DNA of 41,717 bases from positions 1 through 41,717 of the IMG/VR virus record IMGVR_UViG_3300046811_000149. One strand, written 5' to 3'. Below are positions 5,414 to 40,956 of the stretch, piece after piece. The stretch is from a virus. Each line of letters starts with the position of its first letter. Position 1 is the stretch's first letter. The notes under the pieces were generated by a model that saw only the letters and a list, made by a program, of their open reading frames with translations, did not search any database and was not told the origin of the DNA. A program made the position numbers and the translations under genes.

Positions 5414-5479
5414 TTCTATTGTTCCCGTCTCTCGGTACCACCGCTATGAGTTGATCTTGCAGCCCGTATGGTCCCCCGT

Positions 5480-5505
5480 GTGTGGCCCCTTAGAGGGGAC
5501 CACAC
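5480..5505 (-). terminator. Stem-loop after the primase-helicase gene
   Basis: GTGTGG-CCCCT pairs with AGGGG-A-CCACAC around a 3-base loop: 11 pairs with one bulged base. It lies about 36 bases downstream of the primase-helicase stop on the transcribed minus strand. No T-tract follows, so it may be an intrinsic-like terminator, an mRNA 3'-end stabiliser or an operator. Confidence 0.5.
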
Positions 5506-5509
5506 ATCG

Positions 5510-5577
5510 GGAACCATAGACGGGCGTGGTTCCACAGAACCTAGGAACCATCCGGAACCATAGGAACCACGGAACCA
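5510..5577. repeat. Iteron-like GGAACCA cluster
   Basis: GGAACCA at 5510-5516, 5544-5550, 5554-5560, 5563-5569 and 5571-5577, plus one inverted copy (TGGTTCC) at 5527-5533. Spacing within the last four is 8-10 bp, near one helical turn. The cluster straddles the 3' end of the primase-helicase gene and runs into the intergenic region next to the stem-loop, so it is not only a codon-use effect. Possible roles are a replication-origin iteron set or a regulator site. Confidence 0.75.
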
Positions 5578-10550: not shown

Positions 10551-10582
10551 CCGCCCCGGTTACGAAATCTGTACCGGGGCGG
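10551..10582. terminator. Perfect 10-bp inverted repeat between the 97-aa gene and the polymerase gene
   Basis: CCGCCCCGGT and ACCGGGGCGG flank a 12-base loop. On the minus strand it is followed by the polymerase leader, so it may act as an attenuator or processing site. On the plus strand it is followed by TGGTGTTTTGG, which would suit a terminator for antisense transcription. Confidence 0.55.
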
Positions 10583-10892: not shown

Positions 10893-11686
10893 CGATCGAT
10901 CGCCCGCAGCAGCGCGGCCAGGCCGGGGTTCAGCTCACGCCACGCGGCCACGATGTCCGATCCTGAGCCGGTCATGACCCCGAGCTGCTCGACCTGGTCC
11001 CGCTGACGTCGGATATCGGTCAGCACCGCCTCGAGCACCTCAGGATCGGTCAGCAGGGCATGCATCCTGGTGAGCTCCGAGCGCGGCCTCAGGACGTCGC
11101 GCAGCCGCACCGGCTCACGATCGGCCGGACGGCACAGATCGCAGTGTGCGAACTCGGTCGCCGTCTTACGGTGAGCCGACACCATGTGTCCGCACGCACA
11201 CATGTCGGTGAGCACCTGACCAGCCATCACGGTGCAGACCGGTTCCCGCAGATGAACATCGGCGGCGACACCTTCACACTCGCTCCGCTCAGCCTGCTCG
11301 AGCGCCGCGCGGAAACCAGGTCTGGCCAGCCAGCCCAGACCGGGCACGCTGCCCGGGGACTGGGTCCGGTCCCGTTGCGCGGCCTCGGCGATCCGCTGGC
11401 TTGATTCCTTGATCGCCTGCTGGAGCCGGGGCTCGGACTTGAGGGGCGGCATCGGGATGTACTGGCAATCGCGCCTGTGCTCTGCGGCAAGCGGCGCACC
11501 GCAGCACGGGCGCCGGTCCTCAGCGGTCTTTATGCGCTCGCGTTGACGCCCCACGATGCTTTCGTACGTCAGGTGCTCCGGGATGGCCGTGACGCCGAAC
11601 GGCGCTGGGCGGCATTCGGTACAAGGACTGGCCACCGTGCAGCCTTGCTCATGCGGTGTCCGGTCAGTCGGCGACAACGTCGTCAC
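10889..11686 (-). CDS. Cys/His-rich protein, probably zinc-binding
   Basis: About 265 aa from the GTG at 11686; a second GTG one codon upstream is equally possible. Both overlap the end of the helix-turn-helix gene. The longer open frame to 11878 is rejected because it only shadows that gene. Cys clusters: CTVASPCTEC near the start, 'RRPCCGAP', and 'MCACGHMVSAH' followed by 'HCDLC', suggesting at least one treble-clef or ribbon site. The C-terminus is helical ('EVLEAVLTDIRRQRDQVEQL'). No family recognised. Position after a regulator and before the polymerase suggests an early role. Confidence 0.7.
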   Translation of the reverse strand: MTTLSPTDRTPHEQGCTVASPCTECRPAPFGVTAIPEHLTYESIVGRQRERIKTAEDRRPCCGAPLAAEHRRDCQYIPMPPLKSEPRLQQAIKESSQRIAEAAQRDRTQSPGSVPGLGWLARPGFRAALEQAERSECEGVAADVHLREPVCTVMAGQVLTDMCACGHMVSAHRKTATEFAHCDLCRPADREPVRLRDVLRPRSELTRMHALLTDPEVLEAVLTDIRRQRDQVEQLGVMTGSGSDIVAAWRELNPGLAALLRAIDR

Positions 11687-11870
11687 CACCCGGGGCGGGT
11701 AGCAGGGCCTCCACCAGGTGGATGCTGATTTGCACCTTGCCGGGCGTCTCGCGGTAGTCGGTGCGGCCGGGTGTGCCGGCCGGGATGTGGCGGTCAATCG
11801 TCCGGACCGAGACGCCGAGCAGCTTCGCGGCCTCTTCCCGGGTGACCGTGGTTCTCGGTGGGGTTTCCAT
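11664..11870 (-). CDS. Small helix-turn-helix DNA-binding protein (excisionase/MerR-like fold)
   Basis: 68 aa. 'TREEAAKLLGVSVRTIDRHI' (residues 10-29) is a clear helix-turn-helix of the kind seen in excisionase/MerR-type winged helices, followed by a wing-like 'VQISIHLVEALLP'. With no integrase nearby, a transcription regulator is more likely than an excisionase. Its ATG is preceded by TAGACA, 18 bases, CATCAT and 6 bases, so it is predicted to be leaderless and to start within the divergent operator region. It is the best candidate to bind the ACTTGwC sites that overlap its own promoter (inference). Confidence 0.82.
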   Translation of the reverse strand: METPPRTTVTREEAAKLLGVSVRTIDRHIPAGTPGRTDYRETPGKVQISIHLVEALLPAPGGDDVVAD

Positions 11871-11906
11871 ACCCGCATGATGTCCCTACTTGACGCATCT
11901 TGTCTA
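11871..11906 (-). promoter_or_regulatory. Leaderless promoter of the helix-turn-helix gene
   Basis: On the minus strand: TAGACA (11906-11901), an 18-bp spacer, CATCAT (11882-11877), six bases, then ATG at 11870. Taking the A of ATG as +1 places the boxes at -36/-31 and -12/-7, the standard positions. No Shine-Dalgarno sequence is present. The ACTTGwC operator pair overlaps it. Confidence 0.6.
11888..11904 (+). promoter_or_regulatory. Tandem ACTTGAC / tCTTGTC operator in the divergent control region
   Basis: Two heptamers start exactly 10 bp apart. The operator overlaps both the rightward -35 (TTGACG, 11890-11895; -10 TACGGT, 11914-11919, 18-bp spacer) and the leftward -35. A protein bound here could control both arms. 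The 28 bases TACTTGACG...CTAGCGG are repeated nearly exactly at 14191. Confidence 0.65.
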
Positions 11907-11926
11907 GCGGGGCTACGGTCTGAACC

Positions 11927-12015
11927 TGTCCACCAGCCGGGTCACCATCAGATAGATGCCTGGGCTGTAAGCCGACGATCCGGGCATTGGCACCCCGGAA
12001 CTCGGCTGGTGGACA
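11927..12015 (+). ncRNA. Structured leader element A: long nested stem-loop
   Basis: Outer stem of 16 bp: TGTCCACCAGCCGGGT (11927-11942) pairs with 12000-12015, with one G-U pair. Inside, ATGCCTGG (11956-11963) pairs with CCGGGCAT (11980-11987), and a competing small hairpin GGCT-GTA-AGCC lies within that loop. It sits just downstream of the rightward promoter, so it would be the 5' part of the plus-strand transcript. No open frame covers it convincingly. Could be a regulatory leader, a small RNA or a protein-binding DNA cruciform. Confidence 0.6.
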
Positions 12016-12024
12016 TCACAGATT

Positions 12025-12109
12025 GGGACAGAGGCGCGTCGGTAAGCCGCCCCGTGAGGTTCACCCCTCCGGGCCTCACGGTTCATGACGCACGGTGCGC
12101 CTCTGTCCC
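12025..12109 (+). ncRNA. Structured leader element B: second long nested stem-loop
   Basis: Perfect 13-bp outer stem GGGACAGAGGCGC (12025-12037) with GCGCCTCTGTCCC (12097-12109), extendable by G-U and G-C pairs. An inner perfect 8-bp hairpin pairs CCGTGAGG (12052-12059) with CCTCACGG (12074-12081). An alternative pairing GCGTC/GACGC (12036-12040 with 12088-12092) would compete with the base of the outer stem, the sort of choice a switch needs. The ribosome binding site of the first plus-strand gene starts 12 bases after it. Confidence 0.6.
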
Positions 12110-12132
12110 CGCCAACCACCAAGGGAGAACCC

Positions 12133-12222
12133 GTGTCCTGGCAGCAGGTCGCCGACGATGCCCTGTTCGTTGTGCTTGTCCTAGGGCTGGCCGCTATTTA
12201 CGCCTGGCTGGACAAGCACTAG
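12133..12222 (+). CDS. 29-aa single-pass membrane peptide, first gene of the rightward operon
   Basis: GTG start with a strong AAGGGAGA ribosome binding site 5 nt upstream. The peptide is MSWQQVADDALF followed by a hydrophobic stretch (VVLVLGLAAIYAWL) and DKH. Its TAG overlaps the helicase GTG (TAGTG), so it also serves to couple helicase translation. Function unknown; it could be a leader peptide for the structured region as well as a membrane protein. Confidence 0.7.
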   Translation: MSWQQVADDALFVVLVLGLAAIYAWLDKH

Positions 12223-13895
12223 TGCTGACGCCCTACCCGCACCAGGAACAGGCGCTGGCCGGTATCGACGCTGCGCTCGCCGCCGGGTTCAACCGCCCCG
12301 CCGTGGTCAAGGCGACCGGGCTGGGCAAGGCGGTGGAGGCGGCGACCTGGATCGCTCGCCAGCACGCGGCCAATCCCCGCGGGCGCACGCTCGCGCTGGT
12401 GCACCGCGATGAACTCGCCCAGCAGCTGCGCAACAAGATCCATTCGCAGGCGCCGCACCTGCGCCCCGGGATCGTCATGGGTACCCAGAACGACTACGAC
12501 CGGCCCGTCGTGATCGCTTCCACCCAGACGCTCGGCCGACGGGACAAGAACGGGCGCAACCGCCGGCGCGAGTCGATCCACTCGGTGGCCCGGATCGTCT
12601 ACGACGAGTGCCACCATGCCGCCGCCCCCACCGCCCGCGAGACGCTCGACTACTTCGGCGCGTTCGGCGGCGTGCCAACGATCGGGTGGACCGCCACGAT
12701 GTCCCGGGAGGACAAGCGCGGCCTCGGCGAGGTCTGGCAGACCATCGTGCAGCGACCAGGCCCTAAGGGTGGGGTCTGGGACACCGAGTGGGGAGTGCGG
12801 AACGGGTACCTGGCCGACCCTCGCGGGATCCGGGTGACCGTCCCGGCGCTCGACCTGAGCGGGGTTCATATCCGCCGTGGCGACCTGGACCAGGATGAGA
12901 CGGCCACGGCGATGCAGGACGCCAACACAGGCGGGGCGATCATCCGGTACATCCACGACATTCTCACTCCCCAGTACGGCCCGAGGCGGGGGACGGTGTT
13001 CGCTCCGAACACTCAAACGACGGTCGAATGGACCGACGAGATGAACGCCGCGGGGATCCCGACCGGTTTCATCCTGGGCACGACCCCGATGGATGAAAGA
13101 CGGCGCCTGTATGAGGCTTTCAGGATCGGGAAACTGTCCTGGCTGATCAATAACATGGTGCTGACCGAAGGATGGGACGCGCCGTGGTGTGATGCCCTGA
13201 TCATCGCCCGGCTGACGAAAAGCGCTGCCCTGTATCAGCAAATGCTCGGCCGGGGCCTGAGGAAGTTCGCCGGTAAACAGGATTGCGTGGTCGGCGATGT
13301 CTGTGGGGTGACCGAGATTCACGGTCTGGCCAGCTTGCAAGATCTCAGCATGGATCGCCTGGTCAAGCCGCGTGATGGTCAGTCGCTGCTCGAGGCGCTG
13401 GACGAATTCGAGGAACTGAGCGACGACGATCACGCAATGCTCGACGAGATCGGCTGGGCGCCGGATCGCCATCCCGTCCACAAGGTCGTTGGCACCGAGA
13501 TCGACCTGTTCGGCAAGTCGCGCTCGGTCTGGTTGCAGACCCGGGCCGGTACCTGGTTCGTGCCGGCCGCTGATCAGCTGTTCTTCCTCTGGCCCCAGCC
13601 TGACGGCCTGTTCACGCTGGGCCGGACGCCGAAAGAACGGGCCGAGCCGGCGATCGGGATCCAGGCTGACCTGGATCTTGAGATCGGGATGGCGCTGGCC
13701 GAGCAGCACGCGCTTGCCTACGCCCCGGCGGAGGCCGGTAAGGACGCACCCTGGCGCCAGACCGGCCCGGTACGCCCCGGCCAGAAACGTGACCTCGAAC
13801 GGTACGGGCTCGGTGTGTCCCGCAGGATGACCGCCGCCGACGCCTACGACCAGATCTGCACCGCAATGGCAACCGTCAGATTGGATGTCCAGTGA
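12222..13895 (+). CDS. Superfamily 2 DEAD/DEAH-box DNA helicase
   Basis: 557 aa from the GTG at 12222. The open frame extends upstream to 11718, but that part crosses the control region. Motifs: Q-like 'YPHQEQAL' at the start; motif I 'ATGLGKA' (31-37), where the usual Thr/Ser after Lys is Ala; motif Ia 'ALVHRDEL'; motif II 'DECH' (128-131); motif III 'GWTAT'; then 'TEGWDAP' and motif VI 'QMLGRGLR'. It resembles RecQ/UvrB/RAD25-type phage helicases used in replication or recombination. GTGA overlap with the next gene. Confidence 0.9.
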   Translation: MLTPYPHQEQALAGIDAALAAGFNRPAVVKATGLGKAVEAATWIARQHAANPRGRTLALVHRDELAQQLRNKIHSQAPHLRPGIVMGTQNDYDRPVVIASTQTLGRRDKNGRNRRRESIHSVARIVYDECHHAAAPTARETLDYFGAFGGVPTIGWTATMSREDKRGLGEVWQTIVQRPGPKGGVWDTEWGVRNGYLADPRGIRVTVPALDLSGVHIRRGDLDQDETATAMQDANTGGAIIRYIHDILTPQYGPRRGTVFAPNTQTTVEWTDEMNAAGIPTGFILGTTPMDERRRLYEAFRIGKLSWLINNMVLTEGWDAPWCDALIIARLTKSAALYQQMLGRGLRKFAGKQDCVVGDVCGVTEIHGLASLQDLSMDRLVKPRDGQSLLEALDEFEELSDDDHAMLDEIGWAPDRHPVHKVVGTEIDLFGKSRSVWLQTRAGTWFVPAADQLFFLWPQPDGLFTLGRTPKERAEPAIGIQADLDLEIGMALAEQHALAYAPAEAGKDAPWRQTGPVRPGQKRDLERYGLGVSRRMTAADAYDQICTAMATVRLDVQ

Positions 13896-14197
13896 CCGTG
13901 CTCTACATCGCAGGCCCGATGACCGGCCTGAAAGATTTCAACCGTCCCGCGTTTTACGCTGCTCAGATTCGGCTGATCGAAGCTGGTTTCGGCACGATCA
14001 ATCCGGCCGACCACGTAGCCGAAGACTGGACCGGGTACATGCGGCTGGGCGTAGCAGCCGTGACCAGAGCGGACGGTGTCGCGCTGCTGCCCGGTCACGA
14101 GAACTCCGCCGGGGTTCGCCTGGAACGACAGGTAGCGCTCGCGCTGGGAATCCCCGTTGACTCGGTGGACGCCTGGCTGAACCTTGTCTCTACTTGA
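13892..14197 (+). CDS. DUF4406 protein, nucleoside 2-deoxyribosyltransferase-like
   Basis: 101 aa. Begins with 'LYIAGPMTGLKDFNRPAF' and contains 'NPADHVAEDWTGYM' and 'ADGVALLPGHENSAGVRLE', the full DUF4406 pattern. The fold is related to nucleoside 2-deoxyribosyltransferases, so a nucleotide-processing role is likely, but the substrate is unknown. GTG start overlapping the helicase stop. The 14191 operator lies in its last codons. Confidence 0.88.
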   Translation: MTVLYIAGPMTGLKDFNRPAFYAAQIRLIEAGFGTINPADHVAEDWTGYMRLGVAAVTRADGVALLPGHENSAGVRLERQVALALGIPVDSVDAWLNLVST

Positions 14198-19240: not shown

Positions 19241-19277
19241 CAGGCCCGGATCCGATACCGGATCCGGGCCTGTCTCT
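19241..19277 (+). terminator. Rho-independent-like terminator, 13-bp stem
   Basis: CAGGCCCGGATCC and GGATCCGGGCCTG are perfectly complementary around a GATACC loop, followed by TCTCT. It closes the exonuclease-to-64-aa block directly before the next operator-promoter. Confidence 0.8.
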
Positions 19278-23397: not shown

Positions 23398-23428
23398 GGG
23401 CCCCGCTGGGAAAGATCCAGCGGGGCCC
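23398..23428. terminator. Bidirectional 12-bp-stem terminator between convergent operons
   Basis: GGGCCCCGCTGG and CCAGCGGGGCCC form a perfect stem with a 7-base loop. It lies 8 bases after the last plus-strand gene and about 44 bases after the end of the holin-like gene on the minus strand. It lacks a T-tract, as is common in high-GC hosts. Confidence 0.8.
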
Positions 23429-34959: not shown

Positions 34960-34996
34960 GGAAAGTGTAGACAAGTAGAGACAGGCTTGCTATAAT
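34960..34996 (+). promoter_or_regulatory. Strong sigma-70-type promoter of the plus-strand cassette
   Basis: TAGACA (34968-34973), 17-bp spacer and a perfect TATAAT (34991-34996), the best promoter in the window. GACAAGT (34970-34976) and a weaker GGAAAGT 10 bp before it are the reverse complement of the ACTTGwC operator pair, overlapping the -35. The leader carries ACACCAACA (35016-35024) and AAAGG. Confidence 0.75.
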
Positions 34997-38291: not shown

Positions 38292-38358
38292 TGCAGTGCC
38301 TTCCTGCTTGACTGGGCGGATGCTCCGGGGGCGTCACTGCCCGGTCCGTCGTGCTCGC

Positions 38359-38443
38359 TCCGCTACCGGGGATCGAACCCGGACCGCTGCAAGAGCCTGG
38401 CGACCAGGTGATTGCAGCGCTCTGCCAATTGAGCTACAGCGGA
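38359..38443 (-). tRNA. tRNA-like gene with a 21-nt anticodon loop
   Basis: On the minus strand all cloverleaf parts are present: acceptor TCCGCTG/TAGCGGA (last pair G-U), TA, D-arm GCTC-AATTGGCA-GAGC, anticodon stem CTGCA/TGCAG, variable CGGT, T-arm CCGGG-TTCGATC-CCCGG. But the anticodon loop is ATCACCTGGTCGCCAGGCTCT, 14 nt longer than normal. The stem can extend to 7 bp (GCTGCAA/TTGCAGC), and the loop contains its own hairpin, CCTGG-TCG-CCAGG. No CCA is encoded. Identity is therefore undefined: CAC (Val) by counting from the 5' side, or another if 14 bases are removed. Confidence 0.65.
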
Positions 38444-38491: not shown

Positions 38492-39982
38492 CTACCGAAC
38501 GGCCAGCTGGACGAACGGGGAGAGCGTCGGGCCGTTGTTCTGCGGGGTGATGGCCGACTGCAACCACGGCCGGCCGTCGAGCCGCTCGATGATCCGGTAG
38601 GCGGTCTGGTCGTTGCCGAACTTGAAATGTGGGCTCGACATCGCGGACATGACCTGGCGGTCACCGATCAGGTAGTAGCCAAAATCCACGAACGAGATGT
38701 CGCCCTGGGCGCCGAGCAGGCCGGGGGCCTTCTCGGTGAAGACCACGGGCCGGCCCAGGATCGTCATCGGCGGACCGGCCGCACCGTTGTTCAGCCAGAT
38801 GGCCGAGCCGCCGGTGCCGACGGAGAGCGCCATGGTGGCCAGCTCCGGGAATGTGTCGATCGAGCAGACCCACACCGCCCGGTCGAGCGAGCCGGGCAGC
38901 ATCCGGGCGAACATCTTGACGATGTTCTCCCAGACGATGGTTCCGGTCGCCTGGCCGGTTTCCTTGGTCACGGTGACGATCGAGGTGTTACCGGCGGCCA
39001 GCGAGCCCAGCGGCTCACCGACGCCGGAGCCCTTGAGAAAGGCGATGTCTTCGTAGAACGACAGGGCCTCAGGGAAGATCTGGCCGATGAACGCATCGAA
39101 ACTGCTGATCGAGTCGGCCAGCAGTTCGTTCGGCACCGTCGTGTAGGCGGTGAGTTTCTTGGCGTCCAGCAGGATGCGGCCGAAGCTGGCCTGCGACTCG
39201 GTGAGCGCGGCGCCTTCCTCGGTCCAGTAGCCGACGATGCCGCCGTAGACCGAGCTGACGTTGCTGGTCGCGTCGATCGCGGGGAACGGCACCCGCAGCG
39301 TCTCCATGGGGATGACCCGGGCCCGGCCGCGGACGATGCCGGTCTCCAGCGCCACCCGCAGCAGTTCCGAGCGCAGCGTCTCCGGGATCAGGAACCCGCC
39401 CTCGGACGGCACGGTGGAGTCGAACGCGTTCCGCAGCCGGGCCAGCTTGTCTTGGTTGGCCACGGTGCGGTTGGCGTTGTGCCAGATGGTCGTAAAAAAG
39501 TCCGACGCGGTGGCGTAATCCTTGTCGATCTTGGCGCCCATAGCCTTGGGGTTGTACAGGCCGCCGGCCCGGCTGATCCGGGACTCGCTCATCACCGCCT
39601 CGGGCGTGAGGTTCAGGCGCTGCGGCCGGGCGACGTAACCCTCGGCGTCCGGGTTGTTCGCCTGGTTCTGCAACCACTCGGCGAGCACCACCTGAGTCTG
39701 CTCGCGCACCTGCGCGGCAATGGTCATGTCCTTGTCGGCCCGGGCCCGGGCGTAGTTCGTGATGAACTCGCCGAACGCCTGGCCACCCTGGGTGGCCAGG
39801 ACGGTCATCTTGGCCTGGTCGCCGAGCCAGTTCTCGAGGTCCGCCTCGGACGTCGGGATCGGGCCAAGGTCCTTGAGGGTCAGGGCCGGACCGTTCTGGG
39901 GCCGGCCGATCTTCTCCGGATCGATACCCATGGCGCGCAGGCGCGCCAGGTGAAATGGCTGCACGGTGGACTGATCGGTCAT
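38492..39982 (-). CDS. Major capsid protein, HK97 fold with N-terminal delta domain
   Basis: 496 aa from the ATG at 39982 (GAGAGG site and ATGA overlap with the protease). N-terminal ~120 residues are helical and likely act as the scaffolding delta domain removed by the protease. The fold region shows 'GGFLIPETLRSELLRVALE', 'YGGIVGYWTEEGAALTES', 'KLTAYTTVPNELLADS', 'GSGVGEPLGSLAAGNTSIVT' and 'FVDFGYYLIGDRQVMSAMSS', all typical. Forms the head shell. Confidence 0.95.
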   Translation of the reverse strand: MTDQSTVQPFHLARLRAMGIDPEKIGRPQNGPALTLKDLGPIPTSEADLENWLGDQAKMTVLATQGGQAFGEFITNYARARADKDMTIAAQVREQTQVVLAEWLQNQANNPDAEGYVARPQRLNLTPEAVMSESRISRAGGLYNPKAMGAKIDKDYATASDFFTTIWHNANRTVANQDKLARLRNAFDSTVPSEGGFLIPETLRSELLRVALETGIVRGRARVIPMETLRVPFPAIDATSNVSSVYGGIVGYWTEEGAALTESQASFGRILLDAKKLTAYTTVPNELLADSISSFDAFIGQIFPEALSFYEDIAFLKGSGVGEPLGSLAAGNTSIVTVTKETGQATGTIVWENIVKMFARMLPGSLDRAVWVCSIDTFPELATMALSVGTGGSAIWLNNGAAGPPMTILGRPVVFTEKAPGLLGAQGDISFVDFGYYLIGDRQVMSAMSSPHFKFGNDQTAYRIIERLDGRPWLQSAITPQNNGPTLSPFVQLAVR

Positions 39983-40956
39983 CGTCTTGCCTCTCTGATC
40001 GCCTGAGCGAACGTGTTCGGGTCGAACCCCGGAACCGGTTCCGGCTCGGGCGTGTGGGGGACGTCGGCCGGGGCCGGTGCGTCGTTGGTCACTAGGGACA
40101 CTGCTGCCTTGAACAGGCTCGGGTTCCACGGAATCGGCTTGGGCTGGGCCTCAGCCATGCTCGCCCGGAACGCCGCCGGATCCCAGGCGATCGGCCCGGG
40201 CTCAAGCACGTCGTCCGGGGTCTCACCCTCAGGTAGAGCTTGAGGGTTTGGGGCCGAAGAATCGACGTCGGGCAGCTTGTCAGGTGCCTTATTGAACACG
40301 GACAGATCGAAACTGGCGGCCTGCCGGTGGGCGCTGCGCTCGGCCGGGAGCGGCGCCACTTCATCGGCGAGCCCGGCGGCAACCGCTTCATCAGCGCCGA
40401 ACCAGGTTTCGTCCGCCATCAGCGCCAGCCAGTCTGCCGACTTGCCGCCGGCACGCTGGGCGTAGACGTCGGCGATGTTGGCCGTGGTCTGGTCGAGCAG
40501 ATCGGCCATCTTGCGCAGGTCGGCGGCCTCACCCATGGAGAAGCCGGACGCGTTGTGGATCATCATCATGGAGTTGCGACCCATGATGACGTGGTCACCG
40601 GCCTGAGCGATCACTGAAGCGATCGAAGCAGCGAGCGCATCCACGCACACGGTGACCTTGGCCGGGTGATCCCGTAGCGCGTTCATGATCGCGATGCCGT
40701 CGAAAACATCCCCGCCCGGCGAGTTCAGGTGCACCGAGATGTCAGCGACGTTCAGCTGTGCGAGCTCGCTGACGAAGCCTTCAGCGGTGATGCCCCAGGC
40801 ACCGATCTCGGCGTAGATCCAGACATCGGCTGCGTTGCCGCCCAGGTTCTGAATCGAGTACCAGTGCTGGTCCTTGACCGGGGCGGTACGGCCGAGCCGG
40901 TCTACCGGTGCCGGGCCGTTCCAGATACGCGGACGTTCCACGTGAAACGCGCTCAT
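39979..40956 (-). CDS. Capsid maturation protease, ClpP-like (S14), with C-terminal repeats
   Basis: 325 aa from the ATG at 40956 (ATGA with the portal-MuF stop); the upstream frame is a shadow. ClpP-like core: 'VHLNSPGGDVFDGIAIMNAL', catalytic Ser in 'ALAASIASVIAQAG' and His in 'MMMIHNASGFSMG'. Cleaves the capsid delta domain and itself. After about residue 210 the tail contains three related segments, 'PIAWDPAAFRASM', 'PIPWNPSLFKAAV' and 'VPGFDPNTFAQAI', joined by acidic Pro-rich linkers; these may act in scaffolding. Confidence 0.92.
   Translation of the reverse strand: MSAFHVERPRIWNGPAPVDRLGRTAPVKDQHWYSIQNLGGNAADVWIYAEIGAWGITAEGFVSELAQLNVADISVHLNSPGGDVFDGIAIMNALRDHPAKVTVCVDALAASIASVIAQAGDHVIMGRNSMMMIHNASGFSMGEAADLRKMADLLDQTTANIADVYAQRAGGKSADWLALMADETWFGADEAVAAGLADEVAPLPAERSAHRQAASFDLSVFNKAPDKLPDVDSSAPNPQALPEGETPDDVLEPGPIAWDPAAFRASMAEAQPKPIPWNPSLFKAAVSLVTNDAPAPADVPHTPEPEPVPGFDPNTFAQAIREARR

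What the first reader, a model, noticed from the sequence alone, without database searches (positions are those of the whole stretch)
11927..12109. Two consecutive long nested stem-loops form a non-coding leader in the divergent control region
Seen: element A has a 16-bp outer stem (11927-11942 with 12000-12015) and an 8-bp inner stem; element B has a perfect 13-bp outer stem (12025-12037 with 12097-12109) and a perfect 8-bp inner stem. They share the same architecture, are nine bases apart, and fill the gap between an operator-promoter and the first rightward gene. Element B has an alternative pairing that would compete with its own base. I recognise no riboswitch family. This may be a new phage leader RNA, small RNA, or structured origin/operator DNA.
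Basis: partly seen in the sequence, partly recalled or inferred. Interest (0 to 1): 0.78.

Follow-up and report, generated by a model that had tools for sequence, protein, structure and literature searches.

The report
Two-hairpin leader of phage replication operon
Just after a phage promoter the RNA should fold into two hairpins, and a related phage keeps the same two hairpins at the same spacings with mostly different letters, so the folded shape itself appears to be what selection protects, most likely to shield the start of the replication-gene message.

Summary
The two nested stem-loops are real, at the stated coordinates, and far above chance (z -5.3 and -6.3; 5 perfect inverted repeats of 13 bp or more in the window against 0.17 per shuffle). 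One relative was found, G001 (IMGVR_UViG_3300021363_000010; helicase 78% identical). Behind the orthologous regulator and promoter it also has two hairpins, with diverged stems and different sizes (24 and 72 nt against 89 and 85). In register, all 23 shared pairs form in both phages; 13 differ on both sides and none is broken. Spacings are invariant: 7 nt from the -10 box to hairpin 1, 9 identical nt (UCACAGAUU) between the hairpins, 23 nt from hairpin 2 to the start codon, although the first gene differs. Best reading: the structured 5' leader of the rightward helicase/exonuclease operon. Hairpin 1 lies at about +1 and shields the RNA 5' end, as in M. tuberculosis DrrS; hairpin 2 and the linker act before the ribosome site. 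A put-like antitermination RNA is the main rival. Riboswitch, attenuator and replication-origin readings are not supported. No Rfam family matches. Transcription and function are untested.

The parts
11886..11904 (+). operator-like direct repeat CTACTTGAC-GCAT-CTTGTC, 10-bp period; related copies near 14191, 19277, 21054 and 34849
   Evidence: the same motif stands at the same place in G001
11890..11919 (+). rightward promoter TTGACG - 18 nt - TACGGT (-35 at 11890-11895, -10 at 11914-11919); start site inferred at about 11923-11927
   Evidence: TTGACG....TTGTCTAG..GGGCTA.GGT identical in G001; start site not measured
11877..11906 (-). leftward promoter-like site TAGACA - 18 nt - CATCAT, giving a leaderless transcript of the regulator gene
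   Evidence: 1 found, 0.0 expected in shuffles
11664..11870 (-). 68-aa helix-turn-helix regulator (excisionase/MerR-like), 78% identical in G001
11927..12015 (+). hairpin 1 (element A): 16-bp outer stem, 8 x 8 internal loop, 10+3-bp inner stem, 6-nt apical loop
   Evidence: counterpart L002:1277-1300 with 9/9 shared pairs and 5 two-sided changes
12016..12024 (+). invariant single-stranded linker UCACAGAUU (12-nt core AUCACAGAUUGG, 12015-12026, identical in G001; unique in the window with up to 2 mismatches)
12025..12109 (+). hairpin 2 (element B): 13 perfect + 4 outer pairs, bulge, 2 pairs, 8 x 8 internal loop, 11-bp inner stem, 8-nt loop
   Evidence: counterpart L002:1310-1381 with 14/14 shared pairs and 8 two-sided changes
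12110..12132 (+). 23-nt spacer carrying the ribosome-binding site AAGGGAG (12121-12127); also 23 nt in G001
12133..12222 (+). first gene: 29-aa hydrophobic peptide (GTG start), replaced in G001 by an unrelated 111-aa ORF
12222..13895 (+). DEAD/ResIII-type helicase, second gene of the operon

Best explanation
It is the structured 5' untranslated leader of the rightward replication operon (small peptide, helicase, exonuclease). Transcription starts at the conserved promoter so that the RNA begins within a few bases of hairpin 1. Hairpin 1 then seals the 5' end and slows 5'-end-dependent decay. Hairpin 2 and the invariant linker UCACAGAUU separate that cap from the ribosome-binding site and keep it open whatever gene comes first, so the long early mRNA is stable and reliably translated. 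Shown here: the hairpins, the two-sided pair changes, the fixed spacings, the invariant linker, the non-coding character. Inferred: transcription, start site, stabilising effect. Unknown: what reads the linker.
For: Structure far above chance. In G001, 23/23 shared pairs form, 13 with two-sided changes, none broken; sliding the 3' arms leaves 0-3 pairs. Distances -10 box to stem 7 nt, between stems 9 nt, stem to start codon 23 nt are the same in both phages while hairpin sizes and the first gene differ. Structure without sequence, anchored to RNA 5' end and ribosome site, fits a physical 5' cap. In an actinobacterium, M. tuberculosis DrrS has a 5' stem-loop whose first stem base is +1; it gives hours-long half-life, is spoiled by extra 5' bases, and raises a reporter about 3-fold when placed right after the start site (PMC5360333). 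The + strand folds better than the - strand relative to shuffles (leader z -6.1 against -3.1 in the window, -5.4 against -4.9 in G001).
Against: Only two genomes. No transcript data; the start site is read from a consensus promoter, and the best purines (11922-11924) would leave 3-5 unpaired bases, whereas two extra bases already destabilise DrrS. A simple cap needs neither 85-89 nt hairpins nor an invariant linker. More distant relatives (G003, G004) have short leaders without such hairpins, so the function is not general.
Confidence: 0.45

Rival explanations
1. A put-like antitermination RNA: the two nascent hairpins bind RNA polymerase and let it read through terminators in the 12-kb rightward operon without a phage protein.
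For: HK022 putL is also two stem-loops starting right after an early phage promoter and acts over 10 kb (PMC9378689). Here too there are two hairpins right after the first promoter of a long operon, and terminator-like hairpins lie further along (19241-19272, 23398-23428).
Against: put RNAs are about 70 nt, share sequence, and single-base changes abolish activity. Here the stems share little sequence, sizes run from 24 to 89 nt, and only the linker is conserved. Other promoters of the same operon lack the element.
Confidence: 0.2
2. RNase III processing signals: the long hairpins are cut to mature the early mRNA, as in T7 early RNA and the lambda N leader.
For: A and B have about 17-19 bp outer stems, an internal loop and an inner stem, a shape known from general knowledge of T7 sites. 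Structure without sequence conservation fits. A similar nested hairpin with outer-stem identity and a changed inner stem stands after the primase gene (5462-5525).
Against: Hairpin 1 of G001 has only 9 bp, too short for a canonical RNase III site, yet its position is kept.
Confidence: 0.15
3. A regulated leader: a phage or host protein (or a metabolite) binds the invariant linker held between the hairpins and controls translation or transcription of the operon.
For: The 9-nt linker is the only unpaired stretch that is identical while both flanks diverged, and it occurs nowhere else in the window.
Against: No Rfam match at any useful score; no terminator after hairpin 2; no conserved aptamer core; the actinobacterial RNase E motif RN|CNU (PMC10641625) is absent from the linker.
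Confidence: 0.1
4. Structured DNA: hairpins used as replication origin or single-strand initiation site between the divergent replication genes.
For: The leader lies between divergent replication operons, and base pairing would be conserved in DNA as well.
Against: Geometry is anchored to promoter and start codon. There are no iterons here. The only iteron-like 9-bp repeats (TATGGTTCC) are at the end of the primase gene (5510-5562; G001 L125 12354-12500). GC skew shows no turn at 12 kb.
Confidence: 0.05

Closest known systems
5' stem-loop of M. tuberculosis DrrS (and other 5' stem-loop mRNA stabilisers such as E. coli ompA)
   Same: Hairpin at or next to the first transcribed base in an actinobacterial setting; function needs the fold, not the letters; acts on whatever follows it.
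   Different: DrrS has one short stem-loop on a small RNA; here two hairpins, one up to 89 nt, with an invariant linker, on a phage operon; effect on stability not measured.
HK022 put RNAs (putL, putR)
   Same: Two successive stem-loops in the nascent RNA just after an early phage promoter of a long operon.
   Different: put is about 70 nt with conserved sequence and a 1-nt gap between stems; here sizes and sequences vary widely and a 9-nt linker is what is conserved; antitermination not tested.
RNase III sites of T7 early mRNA and the lambda N leader
   Same: Irregular hairpin with outer stem, internal loop, inner stem between an early phage promoter and the first gene.
   Different: One of the homologous hairpins has only 9 bp; cleavage not tested.
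LoaP-type leader hairpins (Bacillus dfn/mln operons, PMC12691694)
   Same: Hairpin in a 5' leader that modifies transcription of a long operon.
   Different: LoaP needs a small UNCG hairpin, a LoaP protein and a leader terminator; none was seen here.

Membership tests
5' stem-loop mRNA stabiliser (DrrS/ompA type) | stem begins at or within 1-2 nt of the transcription start | tested here: inconclusive
   Stem starts 7 nt after the -10 box in both phages; the start site itself is only inferred.
5' stem-loop mRNA stabiliser (DrrS/ompA type) | fold conserved rather than sequence | tested here: met
   9/9 pairs of hairpin 1 kept with 5 two-sided changes.
5' stem-loop mRNA stabiliser (DrrS/ompA type) | removal of the stem shortens mRNA half-life | not testable with these tools
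   needs an experiment
HK022-type put antitermination RNA | two stem-loops directly downstream of an early promoter | tested here: met
   definition from PMC9378689
HK022-type put antitermination RNA | about 70 nt in all with sequence conserved between members | tested here: not met
   183 nt against 105 nt; stem arms 4/9, 4/9, 6/14, 5/14 identical
HK022-type put antitermination RNA | terminator read-through via the RNA polymerase beta' zinc-binding domain | not testable with these tools
   needs transcription assays
RNase III processing signal | double helix of roughly 20 bp, with or without internal loop | tested here: not met
   met by A and B but G001 hairpin 1 has 9 bp
Rfam riboswitch or other catalogued RNA | covariance-model match above gathering score | tested here: not met
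   only tRNA in the window; best weak hits 13.2 bits (ASdes, cut-off 40) and 15.9 bits (Scr5676, cut-off 56)
transcription attenuator | intrinsic terminator between leader and first gene | tested here: not met
   0 terminator-like sites in 11600-12400
iteron-type replication origin | cluster of short direct repeats at the site | tested here: not met
   no repeat family beyond the operator in 11700-12400; iteron-like repeats lie at 5510-5562 instead

The most novel reading that the evidence does not exclude
A protein-free antitermination or polymerase-modifying RNA in an actinobacterial phage, which works through fold and linker rather than through conserved stem sequence, unlike every put RNA known.
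Probability: 0.13. Interest if true: 0.8.

Novelty: new variant of a known kind. Interest (0 to 1): 0.5.

Why it matters
Phage leader RNAs outside the lambda and T7 worlds are hardly catalogued, and sequence-based searches cannot see this kind: the stems turn over almost completely while fold, spacing and a 9-nt linker stay. Two phages already give a testable design (promoter - hairpin - linker - hairpin - ribosome site) that can be moved in front of a reporter in an actinobacterium to ask directly whether it stabilises RNA, drives read-through or regulates translation.

Tried and rejected
More homologues: helicase, helicase alignment, polymerase alignment, regulator and regulator alignment, and two promoter patterns plus one operator pattern (all 8 viral-contig scans) and one scan of genomes gave only G001 as a carrier. 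The 42 other hits are one AT-rich (35-38% GC) viral family sharing the motif in an unrelated context. The leader has no BLAST match in phages and nothing meaningful in plasmids. G003 and G004 (helicase 38-39%) have a related regulator and short leaders without paired hairpins. Fourteen further regulator relatives lack the element. Named phages with similar helicases (KYD2, SPI1, EmiRose, Sour, Holeinone) carry polymerase, primase and helicase on one strand, so there is no equivalent divergent leader to compare; Dagobah, related in terminase/portal only, has another layout. MAFFT misaligned A with B; A and B are not alignable paralogues. They share GUAAGCCG and CACCCC, but at different places in the fold, so I treat this as possible chance. 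A covariance model was not built: two sequences with variable interiors would model little beyond 'two hairpins'. Rfam at relaxed threshold gave chance-level hits.

Full report
What was checked. The window is a 41,717-base virus record with about 66% GC. Its terminase/portal region resembles that of Streptomyces phage Dagobah and Thermobifida phage P1312, so it is an actinobacterial phage; the host is unknown. Leftward genes from 11870 down include a helix-turn-helix regulator, a family-A DNA polymerase and a primase-polymerase. Rightward genes from 12133 up include a 29-aa hydrophobic peptide, a helicase, an exonuclease and a DNA methylase.

Elements A (11927-12015) and B (12025-12109) fold as described, with a somewhat larger inner stem in A than stated. 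Folding energy is far below shuffles (z -6.2 for the leader; -5.3 and -6.3 for the elements). A and B are two of only five perfect inverted repeats of 13 bp or more with loops up to 100 nt in the window, and the only two with loops over 50 nt; shuffled windows have 0.17 on average. B's alternative pairing is 4.9 kcal/mol worse.

Surroundings. A consensus promoter TTGACG-18-TACGGT ends at 11919, seven bases before A. A leftward promoter overlaps it and would make the regulator mRNA leaderless. The promoter contains a direct repeat, ACTTGAC-N3-ACTTGTC type, that recurs near 14191, 19277, 21054 and 34849. Only the copy at 11887 is followed by a long hairpin leader; at 14191, 19277 and 21054 a start codon follows within about 40-65 bases. 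The leader is not coding: its codon-position GC pattern is flat compared with the helicase, although the helicase frame happens to be open back to 11718.

The homologue. One close relative was found, G001 (IMGVR_UViG_3300021363_000010, 40,900 bases): helicase 78%, polymerase 66% and regulator 78% identical. Behind the orthologous regulator stands the same promoter, TTGACG....TTGTCTAG..GGGCTA.GGT. Then come a 24-nt hairpin (L002:1277-1300, 9 bp, 6-nt loop), the identical 9 nt UCACAGAUU, a 72-nt hairpin (L002:1310-1381, 14 perfect outer pairs), and 23 nt to a TTG start codon. In register, hairpin 1 has 9 of 9 pairs in both phages with 5 two-sided changes; hairpin 2 has 14 of 14 with 8 two-sided and 1 one-sided change; none is broken. 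Sliding the 3' arms by 1-3 bases leaves 0-3 pairs. Arm identity is only 4/9, 4/9, 6/14 and 5/14, while the linker is 9/9 and the promoter segment 35/48. Distances of 7, 9 and 23 nt are the same in both, though hairpin lengths differ (89 against 24, 85 against 72) and the first gene is unrelated. The G001 leader also folds well below shuffles (z -5.4).

What this says. The fold has been kept through near-complete turnover of the stems, so base pairing is under selection. Because spacings are fixed to the promoter on one side and to the start codon on the other, the natural reading is RNA: a 5' leader whose first hairpin sits at the 5' end and whose second sits before the ribosome site. Since the gene behind it changed while the leader stayed, it acts on the operon, not on one gene. 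Fold preference for the + strand is clear in the window and slight in G001.

Mechanism. I commit to a stabilising and insulating leader (0.45). The closest experimental parallel in actinobacteria is DrrS of M. tuberculosis, in which a 5' stem-loop starting at +1 gives extreme stability, extra 5' bases undo it, and placing it after a promoter raised a reporter about three-fold (PMC5360333). Shown: hairpins, two-sided changes, geometry, linker. Inferred: transcription, start site, protection. A put-like antitermination RNA (0.2) matches in position and in having two stem-loops (PMC9378689), but put RNAs share sequence and size, which fails here. RNase III maturation (0.15) suits A and B but not the 9-bp hairpin of G001. 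A protein reading the linker (0.1) is open. Structured origin DNA (0.05) is disfavoured: iteron-like repeats lie at the end of the primase gene instead.

A wider pattern. Other gaps in these two phages carry strong hairpins. One stands after the primase gene (window 5462-5525; G001 L125 12411-12471), with outer strands alike and the inner stem replaced by another perfect stem. The gap before the polymerase gene has one 10-bp hairpin in the window (10551-10582) and two long ones in G001. So changeable hairpins in fixed gaps may be a habit of this phage group.

Limits. Two genomes, both from metagenomes; no transcript data; the remaining search capacity found no third member. Collections may withhold records very near the window.

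Noticed in passing
window 5462-5525 (-); G001 L125 12411-12471: Long nested hairpin in the gap after the primase gene; the outer strands are alike in both phages while the inner stem is replaced by a different perfect stem.
   Followed up: partly
window 5510-5562; G001 L125 12354-12500: Repeats of TATGGTTCC (three head-to-tail copies in G001, more around them, both orientations) at the end of the primase gene: a candidate iteron origin.
   Followed up: partly
L031 2271-2401 (same as L125 7805-7948): Before the G001 polymerase gene: two tandem hairpins of 16 and 15 perfect pairs, plus an 11-nt loop segment (TCACCTACGTG) exactly complementary to the 3' flank, a possible pseudoknot. The window has one 10-bp hairpin there (10551-10582).
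   Followed up: partly
window 11887, 14191, 19277, 21054, 34849 and inverted near 34970: Recurrent promoter/operator motif CTACTTGAC-N4-CTTG(T/A)C, head-to-tail half-sites with a 10-bp period, probably bound by a phage regulator such as the MerR/excisionase-like 68-aa protein.
   Followed up: partly
L032 15342-15423: 16-bp perfect inverted repeat with a 50-nt loop inside a predicted coding region of G001.
   Followed up: no
window 38357-38443 (-): tRNA-Val (anticodon cac) directly downstream of the major capsid gene (38492-40129).
   Followed up: no
window 11967-11974 and 12042-12049: The octamer GUAAGCCG occurs once in each hairpin, at different places in the fold; a related CAAGCC is in G001 hairpin 2. 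It may be chance.
   Followed up: partly
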